Source: Ustilago trichophora
Taxonomy: Eukaryota; Basidiomycota; Ustilaginomycetes; Ustilaginales; Ustilaginaceae
Assembly (NCBI GenBank): GCA_900323505.1
Contig: OOIN01000027.1
Coordinates: forward strand, 618,141 to 682,140
Direction of reading: 5' to 3'
Length of the DNA stretch: 64,000 bases
The position numbers and the translations under genes were made by a program. Under the pieces are notes generated by a model. That model was not told the DNA's origin. It did not search any database and saw nothing but the letters and a program-made list of their open reading frames with translations. Positions 18,869 to 28,567 of the stretch are shown piece after piece (the first letter of the stretch is position 1; every line of letters begins with the position of its first letter).

Positions 18869-20188
18869 TTACAGTCGCCAACGCTTGCCCACTTCCAATC
18901 CGTCTTCTAGGTTCTGGGCGAGTTCTGGTTGGGCATCCGTATGAGCAGCACTCGTCTTGCCACTCTCTCGGGCTTCATCGGGCACATCTAAGCCTCTCCC
19001 GTTCGCATCTACCTCCATAAAGTTGGGCCTCAACCTCGTGATACTGACAAAACCGTTCATGATCGCCCACACATCTGTACCCTCTGGCAGCTTCCTAGGC
19101 CCGAGCAACGATGCCATGTTGGGAGCGAAATGCAACACGTTTTCCGGCTTCGGTGCTGTGGGAGGCTGTGGTGCCGGAGGTGCGGAATACTTTGTGATTG
19201 GATCGGCGGCGAACAAGGGGCCATAGCGGTTTTCCCAGATTCGAGTCCAGACCACTTCTGGTTTGCTGACGGTTTCACAGAGCGGTACGTTGATGCTGTA
19301 GCATCCGACGTCTGGTTCTTTGTCCCAGTTGATGTAGAGGCGCTGGATGAGGCTGGCCGAGAGTTTGTTGGCTTGGGAGGCGATGTTGCGCAGCTGTGCG
19401 GGATCCAGGCCGGAGTTGCGGGCTTTGGATCGGTCGGCAAAGGTGGGGGCGTTGGCGGTGAAATGGCCAAACGAGACGGCGATGCTGCGGACTCCGGCAA
19501 GGGATGCAGCCATCGCAGCGCCAACGGTACCGGAGGAGAGCGCGAAGGCGGTTCCTGTGTTACGGCCAAAGTTGGGGCCAGATACGACAAGGTCGAAGGG
19601 GGTCTTTGTGTCAGCTGGTGCCTCACGCTCTTCAGCAGTTTCGCCAAAGAAGGCGTTCTGGTTGAAGAGGCCTGCATTCGACGCGGTGGTGGGAGAGCCA
19701 TCGATGAGGATCCATTCGGCAATCTCGCCACGTTGGCGATTGATAGGTCGACGAGTGGCAGACCACGACTCTGCGGTACCGGGTTGCTTGCCGTCAAAGT
19801 TGTCTTTGAGAGGATAGTAGTACCATACGGCGACGGGTCCTTGCAGGGAGAACTGCATGGATCCCCACGACTTTTGGAAAGAAGGGAGGACGACGCTCAC
19901 ATCCCATCCGAGGGCAACGAGTTCTTCGTACAGTCCAAGAACGTGGGGTGAAGACGCAGAGGGTGGGCCATCGTCGTTGACCAGCAGCACCTTGGGTCTT
20001 GAATTGTTGGAGGGGGTGGTCATGTTGTGTGTATCGTTGTATGAGTTGTGGTGGGTGTCTGACAGTTCGGTGTCGATGTATATGCCTGGTCCAGAGGTGT
20101 GGCGCTGTTGATCGCGGTATAAGAGTACAGAGACGAGTAGAAGGAGCAACGAGGTGCAAAGCGTGTGCAACGAAGGGATCCGCAGCAT
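18869..20188 (-). CDS. SurE-type 5'/3'-nucleotidase or acid phosphatase, membrane-anchored
   Basis: A 439-residue metal-dependent phosphatase of the SurE family. A hydrophobic signal anchor at residues 7-24 (LHTLCTSLLLLLVSVLLY) precedes a Ser/Thr/Asn-rich stem. The catalytic domain starts near residue 62 with VLLVNDDGPPSASS, whose Asn-Asp-Asp triplet binds the metal. Further signatures are VVLPSFQKSWGSMQF and SGPNFGRNTGTAFALSSGTVG, with the conserved Asn. The frame is open to a TTG at 20275; the first ATG is 20188. A second in-frame ATG (MTTPSNNSRPK, about 20020) would give a cytosolic form without the anchor. Fungal relatives include phosphatases such as Yarrowia Pho2; the natural substrate is unknown. 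Confidence 0.82.
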   Translation of the reverse strand: MLRIPSLHTLCTSLLLLLVSVLLYRDQQRHTSGPGIYIDTELSDTHHNSYNDTHNMTTPSNNSRPKVLLVNDDGPPSASSPHVLGLYEELVALGWDVSVVLPSFQKSWGSMQFSLQGPVAVWYYYPLKDNFDGKQPGTAESWSATRRPINRQRGEIAEWILIDGSPTTASNAGLFNQNAFFGETAEEREAPADTKTPFDLVVSGPNFGRNTGTAFALSSGTVGAAMAASLAGVRSIAVSFGHFTANAPTFADRSKARNSGLDPAQLRNIASQANKLSASLIQRLYINWDKEPDVGCYSINVPLCETVSKPEVVWTRIWENRYGPLFAADPITKYSAPPAPQPPTAPKPENVLHFAPNMASLLGPRKLPEGTDVWAIMNGFVSITRLRPNFMEVDANGRGLDVPDEARESGKTSAAHTDAQPELAQNLEDGLEVGKRWRL

Positions 20189-20500
20189 CAACAGATGATT
20201 GGTTGGGGAAAAAGAAACAGGATGATGTTGGTCAAGCACAGATGACAAAACAGGCTTGTGCGCTTTCTTTGTCAATCACACATGGCATACACTAATGTCG
20301 GCCTTTCTCAGTTGCCGAACCCCGAATTGTCTTCTCAAAGATGTGAGATCGTGCTGTACAACAGATGGTGTGGAGGCGCAAATTTTGGCATTTTGATATT
20401 TCAAGCAGCAACGCACCTCCGCATCATCATCGCCTTTGTCGTCCAAACCGCTCGCTACCTTTAGCATCCATCGATCGAACAACACGAACTCCCAAGCGAC

Positions 20501-20511
20501 GCATAAAAAAG
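20501..20511 (+). promoter_or_regulatory. TATA-like A-rich element before the ATPase C-terminal fragment
   Basis: GCATAAAAAAG lies about 115 nt upstream of the ATG at 20624, which is the first ATG after it. This could let the detached ATPase fragment be transcribed on its own. Based on motif and spacing only. Confidence 0.3.
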
Positions 20512-20623
20512 GCTGCGCATATCCACAGCAGCGCAGTCCAAGCCCGCCAGCATCTCCTCCTCAGACGACGACGAATTCGAGCTGCAGCCTCTCTCCGGAG
20601 GCTCCGCCCTATCACCGGTCACC

Positions 20624-21244
20624 ATGACTACCACATACTCGCACGGTCACACTCCAATCCATCCTCGCGCGCCCACCGCCAACCTCGTCTCGGTCAAGGT
20701 GCTCGTCAGTCTCATCGGTCAGGTTGCCATTTGTGGCGCTTTTCAGGCGTGGGCTTTCTACTACGTTCGACGTCAACCATGGTACGAGCCCCCCGAGATC
20801 AACCCTGACGAGCTCAATGTCGTTAATCCGGAGAATTCGGCCGTGTTCCTCGTCTCCTCGTTCCAATACATCACAGGTGCCTTGGTATACAGCACAGGGT
20901 TCCCCTATCGTAAGCCTCTGTACACCAACGTGTGGCTGATGGCGACCGTCACGCTGCTGCTAGGTCTCTCTCTCTATGCCCTCTTCACACCATCCGGATT
21001 CATCTTTGACCTGCTCGGGCTGGTCGAGTTCCCGCGCTCATTCCACATCGCACTTTTCATCGCGGTAGTCCTCAACACGGTGCTCTGCTTTGTCTTCGAG
21101 TCGATCCTGTCCAAGTACGTCGTCAAGCTCGTCAAAGGCCTCCAGCGACTGGCACGCCGCTCGAGAAGGTCAAAGACGCGCAAACACGGAAGCAAGCTGT
21201 ACAAGGCTGTCGAAAGGAGCATGCAGCACGACGGAGATGCCTAG
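20624..21244 (+). pseudogene. detached C-terminal piece (M7-M10) of the P5B-type ATPase
   Basis: A 206-codon frame equivalent to the last quarter of P5B cation/polyamine ATPases (Ypk9/ATP13A2). It begins in the M6-M7 loop with HPRAPTANLVSVKVLVSLIG. Four membrane helices follow: M7 about 24-48, M8 about 82-102 (FLVSSFQYITGALVYSTG, a family hallmark), M9 about 110-130 and M10 about 145-165. A basic C-terminal tail closes it. It lacks all catalytic domains. Exactly this region is missing from the ATPase gene at 24224-28567, which lies on the opposite strand. The ATG at 20624 has a perfect context (GTCACCATGA), so the piece may still be translated as a four-helix protein, but the first dozen residues (MTTTYSHG) do not look like ATPase. 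Confidence 0.82.
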
Positions 21245-22104
21245 CTTTCTTTTCACTCATTCTCTTCTGCTGTATTTGTACGTTTTGCACCACCACACGT
21301 TGCTCTTGGCATATCGCAATTCCGATACCCTTGGTTTGCGTTCTCGGGTGCTAACGGAGCAAGAATAAGTCGTCTTTCTGCTTAAGAAAGTAGGACGGGT
21401 TAGTCATGGATTTGGATGTTCTCGAGATCCACGATCTTGTGCTCTCCCCCCTATACAAGTGACTTTGACAGGAACACGAACAAGACCGAGTTGTTGCGGA
21501 TCCTCAGCCAAGTAGGTGCGGTAATTTGGCTACTGTTAAACCGAGCAAAGTACCGTGTTCTGCAATTCTGCTCTCCTCCGCAGGAAAAAGGTCAAACGGA
21601 ATTGGCCGAGACTTTGTTTTGACATGTGATTTTTTCTGGTTTTGATTTTCTGGAACCCGCGGAACGTTGGAAAATTTTCCTTGTGGTGTCCAACTCCGCA
21701 ACCCGTCCTACCAACAAATCATAACGCCATTCGAGAGCACAATGTCGAGTGAAGCAACCAACCAGAAGTCAGGGTCGTGCGACCCTTCTAACCTTGGAAG
21801 GGCTGGAGCGCAAAGACCGCGTGGACATCTAGTGTGCTGATTCGGTTTCTGCTTTAGGCTCGAGTTTTCGTGCTCGCTTGTGCAATCGAACATGTTGGGA
21901 AAACCTCGACAATTTTTCCTCAACTAAGGCGCTACAGGAACTTAACGAGCGAAGCTTATCTTTAGCCCGGACAAGCGTTCCTGAGCCAGCTTCTGCAATC
22001 CTTAGCAACCTTTTGCGAGTCCGTCTTCCCCTACTTTGTGTGCAACGTGAGCATCGTCCAGGGGTTCCTTCCGTACAACATTCTCGGTCCTCCTCGCCTT
22101 CACC
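21245..22104. other. intergenic region
   Basis: About 860 bp upstream of the permease gene, with an AT-rich patch at 21590-21690 and a C/T-rich leader at 22020-22104. No convincing coding sequence. Confidence 0.6.
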
Positions 22105-23823
22105 ATGTCGCAAACTCAAGAGGCCGTTATCGGCACAGGCTCGTCAATGGAAGCTTCGCACAACAACAAGCTTCGATCCGAGGAAGATGGTGGCTCGATC
22201 GACAAGGCCTTCCACGCCACGTCGTCGGAAGATAACGCCAACGTAGGTGTCACCACCACCGAGCAGGTGCACCTCAAGCGAGGTTTGGAACAGCGTCATC
22301 TTTCAATGATTGCCTTGGCCGGTTCGATTGGTACGGGTCTCTTCCTTTCACTCGGCGGTTCAATTCAGACTGGTGGTCCTTTGGGTGCTTTGCTCGGCTA
22401 TGCCGTGGTTGGAGCCATCGTCTGCGCCGTGCAGTTCGCCTTGGGTGAGGTTTCGGCTCTCCTCCCTGTCACCGGATCCTTTGTTCGACATGCCGACTTC
22501 CTCATCGACCCCGCCTGGGGTTTTGCAGTGGGTTGGAACTTGGTATACGGCAACCTGCTCTCCATTCCCTCGGAGATCTCAGCCATCTGCGTCCTGTTTC
22601 AGTTCTGGACAGACATCAACTCTTCGCTCTGGATCATGATCTTCATCCTCCTGACTTTTGTCATTGGTGTTGCCTTTGTCCGCGCCTTTGGTGAGACCGA
22701 ATTCATCTTCGCCTCCCTCAAGCTTCTCACGGTCGTCTTTCTTATCATCTTTGGCCTCGTCGTTAACCTCGGCGGCATTCCTGGTGTCGAGCGTATCGGC
22801 TTCCGATACTGGGACAAGCCAGGCCCCTTTGTCGAGTACATCGGTAAGGGAGCATGGGGTAGATTCCTTGGATTTTGGTCGGTCATGGTCAATGCGGTCT
22901 TCAGCTTTGCTGGTGTTGAGAGTTTGGCTATGGCCGCTGCAGAGACGCGCAACCCCGGACGTGCGATCCCAAGAGCCTGTAAGAGGGTCTTTTTCCGCAT
23001 TGTTCTGTTCTACTTGCTTGCGGTTCTCGTTGTCGGCATGTTGGTGTCTTCCGATGATCCGCGTCTCGACGATGAATCCGGAACAGCGGCTCAATCGCCG
23101 TTCGTCATCGCCGTCTCTACTGCAGGATATTCAGCCGTGGGATCGGTCGTAAATGCAATCGTCATCACGTCGGCATGGTCATCTTCAAACCAAGCCCTCT
23201 TGGCAGGCACTCGTGTCCTCTACTCGCTCGCTCTCAAGCGTCAGGCACCGCGCTTCTTCCTTCGCACCACTTCGTGGGGAATTCCTATCTACGCCGTTCT
23301 CTTCTTTACAGCGTTCATGTTCCTCAGCTTCATGACGCTCTCCTCTGGCGCTCTGACCGTTTTCTATTGGTTCCTCAGCTTGACTTCGGCCGGAGTGCTC
23401 GTCTCGTGGTCGACGCTCCTTTTCAACCACATCAGACTCAAGACTGCGCTCAAGCGTCAAGGCATCCCCGCATCCGAACTTCCCTGGAACAACGGCTGGA
23501 CACTCTACTCGAGCTACGCAGCGCTCGTCATGTGCCTCATCATCCTCTTCACCGGTGGCTTCCGAGTCTTCACTACAGGCGGGTGGAACGCAAACAGCTT
23601 TGTCTCGAGCTACCTCGACATCCCGCTCGTCATCGCTTTCTTCTTGGGCTGGAAGTTTATCAAGAAGACCAAGTGGGTCAACCTCGAGGATCTGCCTCTG
23701 CGAGAGGCCATCGAAGAAGCCAAGCAGCGTGCCGAGCAAGCCAGGATCGAGCAGGAGGCAGAAGACGCTCTCAAGCAAGGCCAAAAGACTTGGCTCAAGT
23801 ACATCAGTTGGATCTGGGATTAA
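22105..23823 (+). CDS. amino-acid permease (AAT/Gap1-type, APC superfamily)
   Basis: A 572-residue proton-coupled amino-acid transporter of the fungal plasma membrane. After a hydrophilic N-terminus of about 60 residues, the first helix carries the family signature RHLSMIALAGSIGTGLFLSL, with the GSIGTG substrate-contact loop. Twelve membrane helices follow, including GVESLAMAAAETRNPGRAIP in the helix 5-6 region, characteristic of the YAT family. The C-terminal tail is charged and helical (EEAKQRAEQARIEQEAEDAL). The ATG lies in CACCATGTC. It is the only complete gene inside the segment that appears inverted relative to the split ATPase, so its promoter may have new neighbours. Specificity cannot be assigned. 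Confidence 0.9.
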   Translation: MSQTQEAVIGTGSSMEASHNNKLRSEEDGGSIDKAFHATSSEDNANVGVTTTEQVHLKRGLEQRHLSMIALAGSIGTGLFLSLGGSIQTGGPLGALLGYAVVGAIVCAVQFALGEVSALLPVTGSFVRHADFLIDPAWGFAVGWNLVYGNLLSIPSEISAICVLFQFWTDINSSLWIMIFILLTFVIGVAFVRAFGETEFIFASLKLLTVVFLIIFGLVVNLGGIPGVERIGFRYWDKPGPFVEYIGKGAWGRFLGFWSVMVNAVFSFAGVESLAMAAAETRNPGRAIPRACKRVFFRIVLFYLLAVLVVGMLVSSDDPRLDDESGTAAQSPFVIAVSTAGYSAVGSVVNAIVITSAWSSSNQALLAGTRVLYSLALKRQAPRFFLRTTSWGIPIYAVLFFTAFMFLSFMTLSSGALTVFYWFLSLTSAGVLVSWSTLLFNHIRLKTALKRQGIPASELPWNNGWTLYSSYAALVMCLIILFTGGFRVFTTGGWNANSFVSSYLDIPLVIAFFLGWKFIKKTKWVNLEDLPLREAIEEAKQRAEQARIEQEAEDALKQGQKTWLKYISWIWD

Positions 23824-24223
23824 AGGCGCTCCCTTCTCTTCCATATCTTGACAAAGCGTCAACCGCACATTATACCCCCGTTTCCCATCTCTTCGTTTCT
23901 TACCTTGCTTGTATTGTATCGCTATTTGTTCACGGGTCCTCGTCGATCAACGACATGGAGCTCGGCGTCAACCGCCAGCTCTGGTAACTTGTTCTGTCAT
24001 CTTGCACTATTTTGCCAAATCAAATGCCTTCCCAACCCTGTGCAAGAAAGTGCCTGCGCGAAAAGCACTGCAATCCTTGATCTTCTCGACCAGTTTCGTT
24101 GGCTCAAGATTCGTCTTCTCAACACCGACCGCCACGCGTTCACTTCAGCCACACTCTGCTTCCACTGCCACTGCTGTAAAATCTGCATTGATGATAATGT
24201 CGGTGGCGTGTTTCCTAGTGGAT
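23824..24223. other. intergenic sequence next to the right inversion breakpoint
   Basis: About 400 bp between the permease stop and the truncated ATPase stop. No gene is evident. A stretch around 24080-24220 gives a Ser/Thr-rich frame on the plus strand with coding-like look but no good start; it may be the remnant of a gene cut by the rearrangement. Confidence 0.45.
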
Positions 24224-27200
24224 CTACGGTGGACCCGTCCGAGCGGAGAAGACACTCAGAGCCAGAACACCAAAGTCTACCGCCAGGAACTGCAAGTCGC
24301 CCATGGAGCCGCCAAAGCTGTACAACGAACATACGGTCATGAACTGGATCATGGAAGTAAGGCAGATGTAGCTAAAGCAACCGAACGAGGTGACCAATGC
24401 CGCGCGTCCCTCCTTGATACAGTCAATTACGCAAGAGATATCGCCGCGATTAGAAGTGAAAGGCGCGGCGACGGAGGCTTCAGCTTCAGAGAGCGAGATG
24501 CCGATGTCAGCTGCTTTGAGAGCACCGCAGTCATTGGCACCGTCACCGCACATGCCGCAAGTGTATCCTGTTGCCTGTAGTCGCTCGATCAGCTCGTGCT
24601 TCTCGTCCGGCGACATTCGTGCAAAGATTGTGCCCTTGATCAGCATACGCCTGACCGTCTCGACGGGTGCATAGTCGATGAGCCACCTGAAGACGTCGCC
24701 CGTTAGTGCGAGCTGGTAATCGGCGAAATCAAACTCTTCAAGGTCCAGCACGTGTGGATCCACTTCCCTCGGTTGCAGATTGTATGGGTCTAGCTTGATA
24801 CGGTCATCGTCGACACTGGACCAGTCAATCACGGCTCTTGGGCTTCGTTGGTCGCCTTGAACAAAGCTTGGCATAAAGACGTGTGCGGATTGGCCAACCA
24901 TGCCACATTCTCGCGCAACGCTGATCGCCGTGCGCGGATTGTCGCCCGTGACCATCTTGGTGATGATGTTGGCGTTCTTGAGCACCTCGATCGCTGGGGC
25001 GGTACCTTCCTTGAGCTTGTTCTCGAAAATGATGAGTCCGAGGAAGCGGAGTCCGCTTTCGGCCTGCTCTCGTCGCATGCGCTGTGCTTTGATCCAGCTC
25101 ATACCTGCCATTGACTTGCCCGCGCAGGCGATAACACGGTACCCGTGCTTGGTATAGTACGAGAGGAGATCATCGTAGTCTGCAGGGAAGGTGTCCTTGT
25201 CGCAAATGTCGGCCATGACTTCAGGCGCACCCTTGACAAAGACCTCCATTGACTGCGACTTGAGACGCTTCACAATGACGCTCATTCGTCGAAGGGACGA
25301 GACGAATTCGAAAGTGCGCAGCACGCCCAGCTCGAGGAAGTGAGCGTGACGGCCGGACTTGATCGCATCCTCCACCTCAAAGGCTTGGCCGCCCGGAGGG
25401 CGCACCACGGTCTGAACAAGCGCCGGGGGCCTCTCGGTCAGCTTGGACTTGCCATTTTTAGCTGTACCTGTCTTCGTAGTTGCTTTAGCTGAGCGCTCCT
25501 TGCCCTCGTCGAGAGTCCAGCCAGTGTACTCGAACATCTTGACATCGAGCGGATCGCCAATGACTTCACCGTCGACCACCTTGAGCGAATGGCAGGTGGC
25601 CAAAGCGTAGAGCAGCGGCATCTTGCGCGCATCCGCATCGTTCTTGGCTCCTGCACCAACCGGCATTTCGTCGACTGTTTCGTGCAGCTCGCTAAATCTG
25701 CCCGCCTTGAGATCGATCGTTCGCGTTCCGAGCACGTCCAGACCGTCGGCAGTAAGAGTGCCTGTCTTGTCAAAGCAAAAGACATTGACCTTGCCTCCGA
25801 TGATGACGCGGTTTGGCGAGATACAATAGATGCCTTGCTTGCGCAGGCGATTGATGGCAAAGGAGATACCGATCGACATTGTGGCCGGCAGAGCAGGCGG
25901 GACAACAACGGTGATGAGATCGAGCGCACGAATGACGATCGTGGGCCAGGCAATGCCGATCTTGACAAAGTTGACAGCAGCAAAGGTGAAGCCGACACCG
26001 GCGGTCGCAGCAAGGAAGCCGATGAAGCGGAACGAATCGCGGTAGAACTTGAAGCCCATGGGCTTGGGGAAGAGCATGCTGCGGACCAAAGCACCTTTGG
26101 TGGTGTTGAAGCCAGTTCGGACGACCATGGCTCTGGCACCAGCCTCGTTCTTGTCGGTGGCACCACTTCCGCGAATGCGGATGATGCGTGTGCCAGAAAA
26201 GAGGAAGTGCTTGGCAAGGTCTGCGGTGACCTCGGTTCCAGCAGCGTGAAGACCGACCATGCTGGGCGTAGTGAGCGGCACCTTGCTGACGGGGACACTC
26301 TCACCCGTGAGCATACTTTCGTTGACGATGGCATCGCCGCTGAGTAGGACACTGTCAGCTGGGAAGAGCAGCAAACCAGGTTCAGCAACGTCATAGACAT
26401 CGCCGGGCACCAAATCGCTCGAGTCGAGGACCTGCCAGCTGCCTTCGCGCAACACCTTGACTTCGCAGGTGAAACGACTCATCTCGCGCATGCGATTGAC
26501 GGTCTGCCGAGTCTCGATGAGTGTAGTCAAGATGGAGAAAAGCGAGATGGCGGCAATGCAGAAGGCGTAGTAGTAGTAGTTGTCGAAGGACCAGAGAATG
26601 ATGGAGACAATCTGGAACATATAGAAGGGGTGGAGTACTTCGTCGACAAGCAACTGCCATGTGGACTTTGCTTGGATGTCGATGACGTTTTTGCCAAAGA
26701 CGGTGGTGCGGTCCTTCTCTGCGTCCCAGCTGATGCCGTCATTGATGGCGCTGAGCGAGGTCCAGAGCGGGTCACGCCAGTCTTTGACCATGCGGAGACG
26801 GCCTGTGGGCGGATGGAGCGCGAAGCGGGTGTAGCGGTAGTCGAAGAAGCTGAGATCCATGAGCTGTTCAGTCTGGACGCCAGAAAGCATTGGTAGGGCG
26901 CCTTTCATGGTAGGCGTATCGGCAGCGTTGCTGGTGCCATTGGCGGGCTGTCCGCCATTGATGATGCTGCTCTTGGCGGAAGCAGTCTTGGAGGGAGCAT
27001 TGCTCTTGTTGACCAGCTCGGGAGGAAGGTCGATTGTAGGTGCTGATTGGAACTCGGCCTGAGTGGAAGGCGGCTCACGCGATGAATGCGGGAAGACGGT
27101 GGCGAGTGGACGGGCAAATGGGATGGTGGTGAGTTTTTCCTTGTGGAGGTCGCCCCACTGGTTTTCGACCATGATGAATTCGGCGTTCTCAAAGTCGACC

Positions 27201-28567
27201 TCCTTGCAAACCCACTTGAGGCGGAAGCGAGGCAGCCAGCGGCCGATGAGATAGACGATGCCAAGGGTAAGGAAACAGATGACGGAGTAGATGATCTGGT
27301 TGGCAACGAGCGTGCGGTAGCCGGTGAAACGAATAAAAGTATCTTCTTCGGTGAGATAGACCTGCTGACGGCTCTTGGAAGACTTGTCGAGGAAACTGAG
27401 CTCTCGCTTTGCGGCAGCAGCACTGACGCCGTGGCCACGAATGTGGGAGCTGGAACGCAGCTCGGCTTCCGAGCGGCCGAAGGCTGAAGCGTCACCTGCC
27501 TCGAGATCGCGACCGCCGAGTTCAGCGTCCAGCTCGTCCTCTGGAGGATGATCGGTGGAAAAGCGCGTGTCTCCAAAGACGGGATCGACTGCACCACTGA
27601 GTGTGCCAAAAGCGGAAGGGAGAATGCCGTTGCGATTGGTGGAATCGTCGTCCGAAGAGTGGTAGGAATCGTCGTCGTCTTCATCGTCAAAGCCGTAGTC
27701 GTCATCGCTCCATCCTCTGCTGTCGTCGAGATCTTCATCTTCATTGTCGTCGTCGTTGCGACCTGCGTCGGATCTAGCTGCTCGCGACGAGACGACTGAG
27801 CCTGACGAGCGCCTGCGTGAGAGGAGAGGTCGAGAGAAGGAGCGGCGGCTGCGTGCATCGTCGTCATCATCGCCTCGATCGCCACGGATGGAAGCAAGGA
27901 TGGAGCCAAGCATACCTTTTGGCTGGCTCGAGCCGGTGAGATCGGCATCTTCGGGTACGCGCTTACGCCTTCCAAAGCGATAGGTGCTACCGCTACGCTG
28001 GCTAGCGGGCTTGCGACGACCAGCGACCGAGTCAGGAGAGACGCTACGCTCGCTTGATGTGGTGATGGCTTCACTTTGGGCAGATGCACTGGAGAGCTTG
28101 CGGGAGCGGCGTGGCGAGCGGCCCTCCATCGAGATACGACGACGAGAGCTTCGGGAAGCGCGACGGCCTAGCTCTGGCCTAGCCATCTCATGACGCATAC
28201 TACTGATAGAACTGGGCACGGCACCGGCACCAGGGCCGTCAAAGATGCTTGCATTTTCGTCATAGCTACCGACCTGACTGTCTCGTCGGCGTCTACGACC
28301 GATTTCTACACCAGCGCCGGATTCGTCGTTGGCAGCGAGATCGGCGTCGCGTTGAGACTGAGCCCATTCGAAAGCTTCTCGTGCTTCCTGATCGTCAAAG
28401 TAGGGTGACGAAGCAAATTCGGCGACGTCCGCTTCGACAGGTGCTTCCTCTGCTTGTTTGAGTTTGTTTGGCAGTTGGAAGGGAGCTTGGTATTCATCGG
28501 CGGCCACTTGGAATTGGTGAGATCTGGATGAGCTCTGACCTCGTTGCGTACGGTCTGGTTCCGACAT
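24224..28567 (-). pseudogene. ypk9: P5B-type ATPase (Ypk9/ATP13A2-like), truncated after M6
   Basis: A 1447-residue reading frame for a vacuolar P5B ATPase, a family that exports polyamines or cations from the vacuole or lysosome. The first 430 residues are Ser/Arg/Asp-rich and disordered. The P5 N-terminal domain follows (YLTEEDTFIRFTGYRTL). Then come the A domain (LTGESVPVSK), the P5B membrane signature PPALPATMSIG, the phosphorylation site DKTGTLT, and the hinge MVTGDNPRTA and GDGANDCGALKAADIG motifs. Helices M5 and M6 end at SARTGPP, immediately followed by TAG. M7-M10 are absent here; they lie at 20624-21244 in the opposite orientation. The catalytic part is otherwise uninterrupted. The start at 28567 (MSEPDRTQ) is chosen over an upstream in-frame ATG at 28837, whose extension does not look coding. 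Confidence 0.85.

What the first reader, a model, noticed from the sequence alone, without database searches (positions are those of the whole stretch)
20600..24240. P5B ATPase gene split by an apparent inversion
The ATPase on the minus strand (24224-28567) stops right after helix M6 at SARTGPP*. The missing M7-M10 part lies 3 kb away on the plus strand (20624-21244). Inverting roughly 20640-24235 would bring the two pieces together in frame order and orientation, giving a protein of about 1650 residues, normal for the family. Both break regions share a short imperfect ACGG(G)TC(C)AC sequence (20643-20650; 24229-24238 on the minus strand). An essential-looking transporter is thus disrupted, with the amino-acid permease gene carried inside the inverted piece.
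Basis: partly seen in the sequence, partly recalled or inferred. Interest (0 to 1): 0.75.

Follow-up and report, generated by a model that had tools for sequence, protein, structure and literature searches.

The report
Polyamine pump split into two genes
In smut fungi a membrane pump that other fungi make from one gene appears to be made from two separate, well-kept genes, and the pump's binding pocket changed along with the split; this is an old, lasting rearrangement, not a broken gene or a sequencing mistake.

Summary
In detail: a P5B (ATP13A2/Ypk9-type) ATPase is encoded as two pieces on opposite strands, M1-M6 with all catalytic domains (24224-28567, minus) and M7-M10 (20624-21244, plus). 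"Disrupted by an inversion in this isolate" is not supported. The other subgenome, about 10% diverged here, has the same arrangement. The 19 closest head homologues listed (Ustilaginales, Urocystidales) lack M7-M10; the next 101 continue into it (91 nearly whole). Intact Violaceomyces is sister to the split clade, so one ancient gene fission is the simplest reading. Between the subgenomes dN/dS is 0.016 (head core) and 0.021 (tail). The cut lies in the cytosolic M6-M7 loop, between transport core and support domain. It goes with a burst of change in the M5-M6 hairpin: the spermine-contacting Tyr is Thr in 19/19 split and Tyr in 101/101 intact proteins, and M6 is one residue shorter. Most likely the two products assemble into a two-chain P5B pump with an altered pocket; separate translation, assembly and substrate are inferred. 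The shared "ACGG(G)TC(C)AC" is chance. My searches of an open-licence library found no report of a naturally split P-type ATPase.

The parts
24224..28567 (-). Head gene: P5B ATPase piece with N-terminal P5 domain, M1-M6 and A, N and P domains, 1447 aa, ending SARTGPP*
   Evidence: TIGR01657 952 bits (cut-off 618), PF12409 3.4e-27, CtYpk9 316-1200; homoeologue 98% identical
24224..24412 (-). Remodelled M5-M6 hairpin and conserved new C-terminus; Thr1404 (codon 24356-24358) stands where CtYpk9 has the spermine-contacting Tyr1157
   Evidence: these 62 residues are identical in both subgenomes although 14 bases differ, 13 at third codon positions
25757..25771 (-). DKTGT phosphorylation motif (Asp at residue 933)
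   Evidence: Asp in 19/19 split and 101/101 intact proteins
20624..21244 (+). Tail gene: M7-M10 support-domain piece, 206 aa, own ATG
20507..20623 (+). In-frame stretch 5' of the tail ATG encoding ...ASISSSDDDEFELQPLSGG..., resembling P0129; no in-frame ATG; role not assigned
22105..23823 (+). Amino acid permease gene lying between the two pieces here and in C29; by locus tags apparently not between them in U. loliicola

Best explanation
An ancient fission of the single P5B-ATPase gene, after the Violaceomyces line separated and before the Thecaphora (Urocystidales) and Ustilaginales lines diverged, left two genes: a head with the catalytic domains and M1-M6, and a tail with the support domain M7-M10. 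Each is translated on its own and both products are kept by selection. The cut is in the cytosolic M6-M7 loop, so both new ends stay cytosolic and the tail can insert as an independent four-helix unit. Most likely the two chains assemble in the membrane into a two-subunit P5B pump of the endolysosomal/vacuolar type. Around the fission the M5-M6 hairpin and, less strongly, M7-M10 changed rapidly (spermine-contact Tyr to Thr, M6 shortened by one residue), so the pocket and the contacts between core and support domain were probably re-tuned. Shown by computation: the split, its distribution and place on the tree, purifying selection, intact catalytic motifs, the pocket change. Inferred: separate translation, assembly, location, and the effect on substrate.
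For: Complementary coverage of one family. Of the 120 best head homologues listed (6893 found, only the 7980 candidates sharing most words scored), the closest 19 have no match to the tail profile and end SARTGPP (17), SARTGPY (1) or SARTGPA (1); the other 101 match it, 91 nearly whole and 10 in part. 26 tail proteins that I assign to the split group were found; 22 of them hold the IHP motif after a new N-terminal stretch that starts with Met (9-20 residues before IHP in 19, 46, 48 and 91 in three); four gene models start elsewhere. Tree without M5-M6 columns (55 proteins): split clade 99.9/100, split clade plus Violaceomyces 99.8/100. Homoeologues: head core dN/dS 0.016, tail 0.021, permease 0.046 at dS 0.32-0.41. 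TGES, PPALP, DKTGT, GDGAND positions and three of four spermine-contact positions are kept in 19/19; the Tyr is Thr in 19/19 and Tyr in 101/101 (contacts from PMC8233418, section read). Fixed replacements concentrate in M5-M6: 8 of 32 conserved positions against 4 of 334 elsewhere, p 5.5e-7. The M5-M6 stem branch is about 30-80 times longer than for the rest of the head, relative to background, and M5 alone, aligned without gaps, gives the same; these are short segments without error bars. Precedent: split-Doa10, whose two chains assemble (PMC3464245, abstract and introduction).
Against: No RNA, protein or interaction data. The tail evolves faster relative to the head than in intact genes: subtree ratio 2.82 against 2.02 and 1.90, stem 0.513 against 0.104, which also fits a looser or changed role. 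The M5-M6 change is large for a pump that works as before. The head model was too poor to use (pLDDT 52.8). Violaceomyces, still in one chain through M7, already shares the M5 Lys-to-Ser change and has a different replacement at the M5 Ala, so some change preceded the fission. A passage of PMC10082790 lists the human polyamine Site1 as W251, D254, D463, Q944, F963 and D967, without the Tyr, so the weight of the Tyr rests on the Ypk9 structure; the M5 Gln is kept in 19/19.
Confidence: 0.72

Rival explanations
1. The head works alone as an M1-M6 pump, and the tail has taken up a separate role, for example as a regulator or a partner of another protein.
For: M5-M6 and the tail both accelerated on the stem, and the tail/head rate ratio stays raised inside the clade (2.82 against about 2.0). 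P1B ATPases work without M7-M10 (recalled, from no call).
Confidence: 0.18
2. The two transcripts are trans-spliced so that one full-length protein is made.
For: It would explain why both halves are kept, and no transcript data exist here to exclude it. AG dinucleotides lie upstream of the tail ATG, the nearest at 20599.
Against: The stop and SARTGPP end are kept in 17 of 19 protein clusters, with only synonymous changes in ARTGPP between subgenomes, and the GT of the window's GGGTCC is absent in the homoeologue (GGCCCG). 22 of 26 tail models have their own Met before IHP, and no AG lies between the window's tail ATG and IHP.
Confidence: 0.04
3. An assembly error or a recent, damaging inversion in this isolate.
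For: The pieces are on opposite strands and their ends fit in order.
Against: Same arrangement in a homoeologous contig at about 90% nucleotide identity, the same split in the 19 closest homologues, and dN/dS near 0.02 for both pieces.
Confidence: 0.01

Closest known systems
P5B ATPases ATP13A2 (human) and Ypk9 (Chaetomium)
   Same: Same domains and motifs (TGES, PPALP, DKTGT, GDGAND), TIGR01657, three of four spermine-contact residues of CtYpk9; the two pieces together cover the family profile except positions 906-919.
   Different: Two genes instead of one; spermine-contact Tyr is Thr; M6 is one residue shorter; new C-terminus after M6 and new N-terminus before M7.
Split-Doa10 of Kluyveromyces (PMC3464245; abstract, introduction and passages seen)
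   Same: Nuclear gene of a polytopic membrane protein split in a cytosolic loop at the base of a clade, both parts kept; there the two chains were shown to assemble.
   Different: There the parts stay in line, separated by a 508-bp sequence with a promoter; here they lie on opposite strands, and by locus tags up to 12 genes apart in relatives. The protein family and the accompanying pocket change differ; assembly is untested here.
Artificially split sarcoplasmic reticulum ATPase
   Same: A P-type ATPase whose separate fragments can assemble (a statement in the introduction of PMC3464245; the original work was not read).
   Different: Artificial, not natural; another P-type family.

Membership tests
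P5B ATPase | Family profile TIGR01657 above cut-off and N-terminal PF12409 domain | tested here: met
   Head alone 952 bits, cut-off 618; PF12409 3.4e-27. The tail alone, 75.5 bits, is below the whole-protein cut-off
P5B ATPase | Catalytic motifs TGES, DKTGT, GDGAND and the PPALP signature of M4 | tested here: met
   The tested residue of each is kept in 19/19 split heads
P5B ATPase | Four spermine-contact residues (D630, Y1157, D1177, D1184 of CtYpk9) | tested here: not met
   Three kept in 19/19; the Tyr is Thr in 19/19; contacts from PMC8233418
P5B ATPase | Core helices M1-M10 in one chain | tested here: not met
   M1-M6 and M7-M10 are on separate genes
P5B ATPase | Polyamine-stimulated ATPase or transport | not testable with these tools
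   Needs biochemistry
Naturally split membrane protein | Intact ancestral form and single origin of the split | tested here: met
   101/101 other listed homologues continue into the tail (91 nearly whole); split clade 99.9/100 with Violaceomyces as sister, whose record ends within the tail
Naturally split membrane protein | Both parts kept by selection | tested here: met
   dN/dS 0.016 (head core) and 0.021 (tail) between the two subgenomes
Naturally split membrane protein | Both parts expressed and physically associated | not testable with these tools
   No RNA or protein data; the tail is annotated as its own gene in 11 named relatives

The most novel reading that the evidence does not exclude
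A natural two-subunit P-type ATPase: in the smut lineage the M7-M10 support domain of the P5B pump became a separate, independently expressed subunit, and this went together with rebuilding of the M5-M6 transport hairpin (Tyr to Thr in the pocket, shortened M6), giving a pump of changed substrate or changed regulation, possibly switchable by supply of the support subunit.
Probability: 0.5. Interest if true: 0.82.

Novelty: new variant of a known kind. Interest (0 to 1): 0.7.

Why it matters
P-type ATPases are known as engines whose catalytic part is a single chain, and whether the M7-M10 support domain must be covalently joined to the transport core has, to my knowledge, been tested only with artificial fragments. 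A fission kept across two orders of smut fungi, with a matching burst in the transport hairpin, would be a natural experiment on how the two parts communicate, on what the conserved pocket tyrosine does, and on how gene fission can create a subunit. It also warns annotators: several smut tails are named hypothetical or uncharacterized proteins, so the pump can be mistaken for a truncated one.

Tried and rejected
Shared breakpoint motif as inversion scar: rejected, 8 matches against 7.1 expected, 43 matches with up to one mismatch against 48.8 expected, not kept in the homoeologue. Second complete P5B: none found; after the homoeologue the best-scoring matches, on C1/C2, are 33% identical and none of the listed ones exceeds 38% (that C1/C2 are P5A is my inference). 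Structure of the head: pLDDT 52.8, not used, no fold search run on it. Inversion as mechanism: kept open. The M6 replacements depend on how the one-residue deletion is aligned; one search uses another alignment, and one search uses M5 without the gap. Matched-distance comparison: tail/head ratios by distance bin 3.99, 2.79, 2.53 and 1.95 in split pairs (5, 17, 11 and 2 pairs) against 2.33, 2.06, 2.04 and 1.90 in intact pairs, so the acceleration inside the clade is moderate and vanishes in the last bin. Rows dropped: only 9 split species with paired pieces (of 19 heads and 26 tails) and 91 of 100 intact proteins entered; 9 split and 26 intact entered. Papers PMC8564547 and PMC10082790 were searched for pocket residues: no hit in the first, two passages in the second. 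Literature on a split P-type ATPase or this gene: (search listings with starts of abstracts) showed none; reviews PMC10654040 and PMC5837089 were searched by passages only. The library is open-licence PMC only.
Full report
What is there. The minus-strand ORF 24224-28567 encodes 1447 residues and stops after SARTGPP; the plus-strand ORF at 20624-21244 encodes 206 residues beginning MTTTYSHGHTPIHP. They cover complementary parts of the P5B family: TIGR01657 positions 3-905 and 920-1054 of 1055, and CtYpk9 residues 316-1200 and 1199-1383. The tail model (pLDDT 76.8) aligns best with P5 ATPases over their last helices; the first 29 rows of the list are all P5 ATPases, though rmsd is high where the long C-terminal helix is included. 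A permease gene lies between the pieces, and a SurE-domain gene lies left of the tail.

Not an assembly error, not a recent break. The window is part of contig C26 of a 38.8-Mb, 45-contig genome. Contig C29 carries the same order and orientation, tail 613113-613727 (+) and head 616694-621043 (-), with the permease between them, and aligns to the window at 90% nucleotide identity over these genes, lower in most other stretches compared. The genome is Ustilago trichophora by inference: the permease of a 659,599-base contig, the length of C29, is listed under that species. No other complete P5B gene was found; after the homoeologue the best-scoring matches are 33% identical.

Distribution. Of the 120 best head homologues listed (of 6893 at E <= 1e-50), the closest 19, the window's own included, have no match to the tail profile and end in SARTGPP (17), SARTGPY or SARTGPA (one each); the other 101 match the tail profile, 91 nearly whole and 10 in part. 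Named split species include Sporisorium reilianum and scitamineum, Ustilago hordei and loliicola, Pseudozyma hubeiensis and flocculosa, Kalmanozyma, Melanopsichium, Testicularia and Thecaphora frezii (names completed partly from locus tags). The tail search returned 37 proteins; I assign P0121-P0146 and the fragment P0150 to the split group, including UMAG_05267 of Mycosarcoma (Ustilago) maydis. Thecaphora is in Urocystidales, Testicularia and P. flocculosa in Ustilaginales, Violaceomyces in Violaceomycetales, all Ustilaginomycetes. In a tree made without the M5-M6 columns (55 proteins) the 19 split heads form one clade (99.9/100) with Violaceomyces as sister (99.8/100). The Violaceomyces record is partial: its chain runs on through M6 into the tail (profile positions 15-79) and ends there. 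One fission, shared by two orders, is the simplest reading.

Linkage. Locus tags are consecutive in U. loliicola (002430/002431) and P. hubeiensis (005570/005571), 6 apart in P. flocculosa and 12 apart in T. frezii. In U. loliicola the permease bears tag 002428, so it is apparently not between the pieces, whereas in both U. trichophora contigs it is. The permease inside an inverted piece is therefore probably not a fixed part of the arrangement. Opposite strands and linkage fit an inversion, but strand and order in the relatives were not seen, and duplication with complementary loss remains possible.

Selection. Between the two subgenomes dN/dS is 0.034 for the whole head, 0.016 for residues 401-1447, 0.021 for the tail and 0.046 for the permease, at dS 0.32-0.41. 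The last 62 head residues are identical although 14 bases differ, 13 of them at third codon positions; the codons of ARTGPP differ only synonymously. In 22 of 26 tail models a Met-initiated stretch, 9-20 residues long in 19 of them and 46, 48 and 91 in three, precedes IHP; four models start elsewhere. These facts point to two separately translated, useful proteins. They speak against trans-splicing but do not exclude it without RNA data.

The pocket changed with the split. In CtYpk9, D630, Y1157, D1177 and D1184 contact spermine (PMC8233418, section read). By alignment these are D883, T1404, D1424 and D1431 here. The three Asp are kept in 19/19 split and 101/101 intact proteins; the Tyr is Thr in 19/19 split and Tyr in 101/101 intact. 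For human ATP13A2 a passage of PMC10082790 names other Site1 residues and not this Tyr. From the M6 Asp to the RT motif there are 11 residues in 19/19 split proteins and 12 in the 100 intact ones that could be parsed (one was not). Positions conserved in at least 95% of intact proteins are replaced by another fixed residue in 8 of 32 cases in M5-M6 and 4 of 334 elsewhere (Fisher p 5.5e-7); with an alignment of 9 split and 91 intact proteins the counts were 10 of 38 and 2 of 326. On a fixed tree the stem branch of the split clade, per thousand of the background length, is 607 for M5-M6 against 19 for M1-M4, 7.6 for the N/P region, 54 for the tail helices and 26 for the tail's C-terminus; M5 alone, which aligns without gaps, gives 589. 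These are 49- and 31-column segments without error bars. Inside the split clade M5-M6 also changes about ten times faster than the rest of the head relative to background, yet it is identical between the two subgenomes. The Tyr change and the shortening fall on the same branch as the fission, while the Lys-to-Ser change at 1399 is already present in Violaceomyces.

Relative rate of the tail. On the fixed tree the tail/head length ratio is 2.82 in the split clade, 2.02 in intact Ustilaginomycotina and 1.90 in other Basidiomycota; the stem is 0.513 for the tail and 0.104 for the head. The tail thus had a burst around the fission and remains moderately faster, though strongly constrained. This fits co-adaptation of two chains and also fits a partly changed role.

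How it most likely works. In P-type ATPases M1-M6 with the A, N and P domains form the transport core and M7-M10 the support domain (general knowledge). The cut is in the cytosolic loop between them, so neither piece needs a new topology. Fragments of an artificially split sarcoplasmic reticulum ATPase, and the two natural pieces of Doa10 in Kluyveromyces, assemble into functional proteins (PMC3464245, introduction and abstract). I therefore expect a two-chain P5B pump in an endolysosomal or vacuolar membrane, with polyamine or a related cation as cargo and a re-tuned pocket. Assembly, location and cargo are inferred.

Novelty. Searches of the open-licence PMC library (listings) showed no report of a natural split in a P-type ATPase or of this gene. 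The kind, a naturally split membrane protein, is known. I rate it a new variant of a known kind.

Noticed in passing
G000 contigs C26 and C29 (window and L013-L015): The 38.8-Mb genome holds two gene sets that differ by about 10% in the DNA of these genes and more elsewhere, and many other P-type ATPase matches also come in contig pairs. U. trichophora NBRC 100157 is listed at 20.7 Mb (PMC8951962, passages), so this assembly looks like a hybrid or a mixture of two related smuts. A listing search for this showed no paper naming it.
   Followed up: partly
20507-20623 (+): Upstream of the tail ATG an in-frame stretch encodes ASISSSDDDEFELQPLSGG, close to ASISASNEIELQPLSRG of P0129. The two gaps between the subgenomes there are three bases long, yet there is no in-frame ATG and the peptides differ at several places. 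A 5' exon, a non-AUG start or a conserved leader are possible.
   Followed up: partly
P0020 (Violaceomyces palustris): The sister lineage already has Ser for the M5 Lys, as in the split group, and Ser at the M5 Ala where the split group has Cys, but keeps the Tyr; so some M5 change preceded the fission.
   Followed up: yes
P0004 and P0149: P5B proteins filed under the plants Cichorium endivia and Adiantum nelumboides resemble those of smuts and related fungi (P0004 lies inside the split clade) and are probably fungal contaminants.
   Followed up: no
18869-20275 (-): A SurE-domain (PF01975) ORF runs divergently from the tail gene, with about 350 bases between them; the tail may use a shared promoter region.
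   Followed up: no
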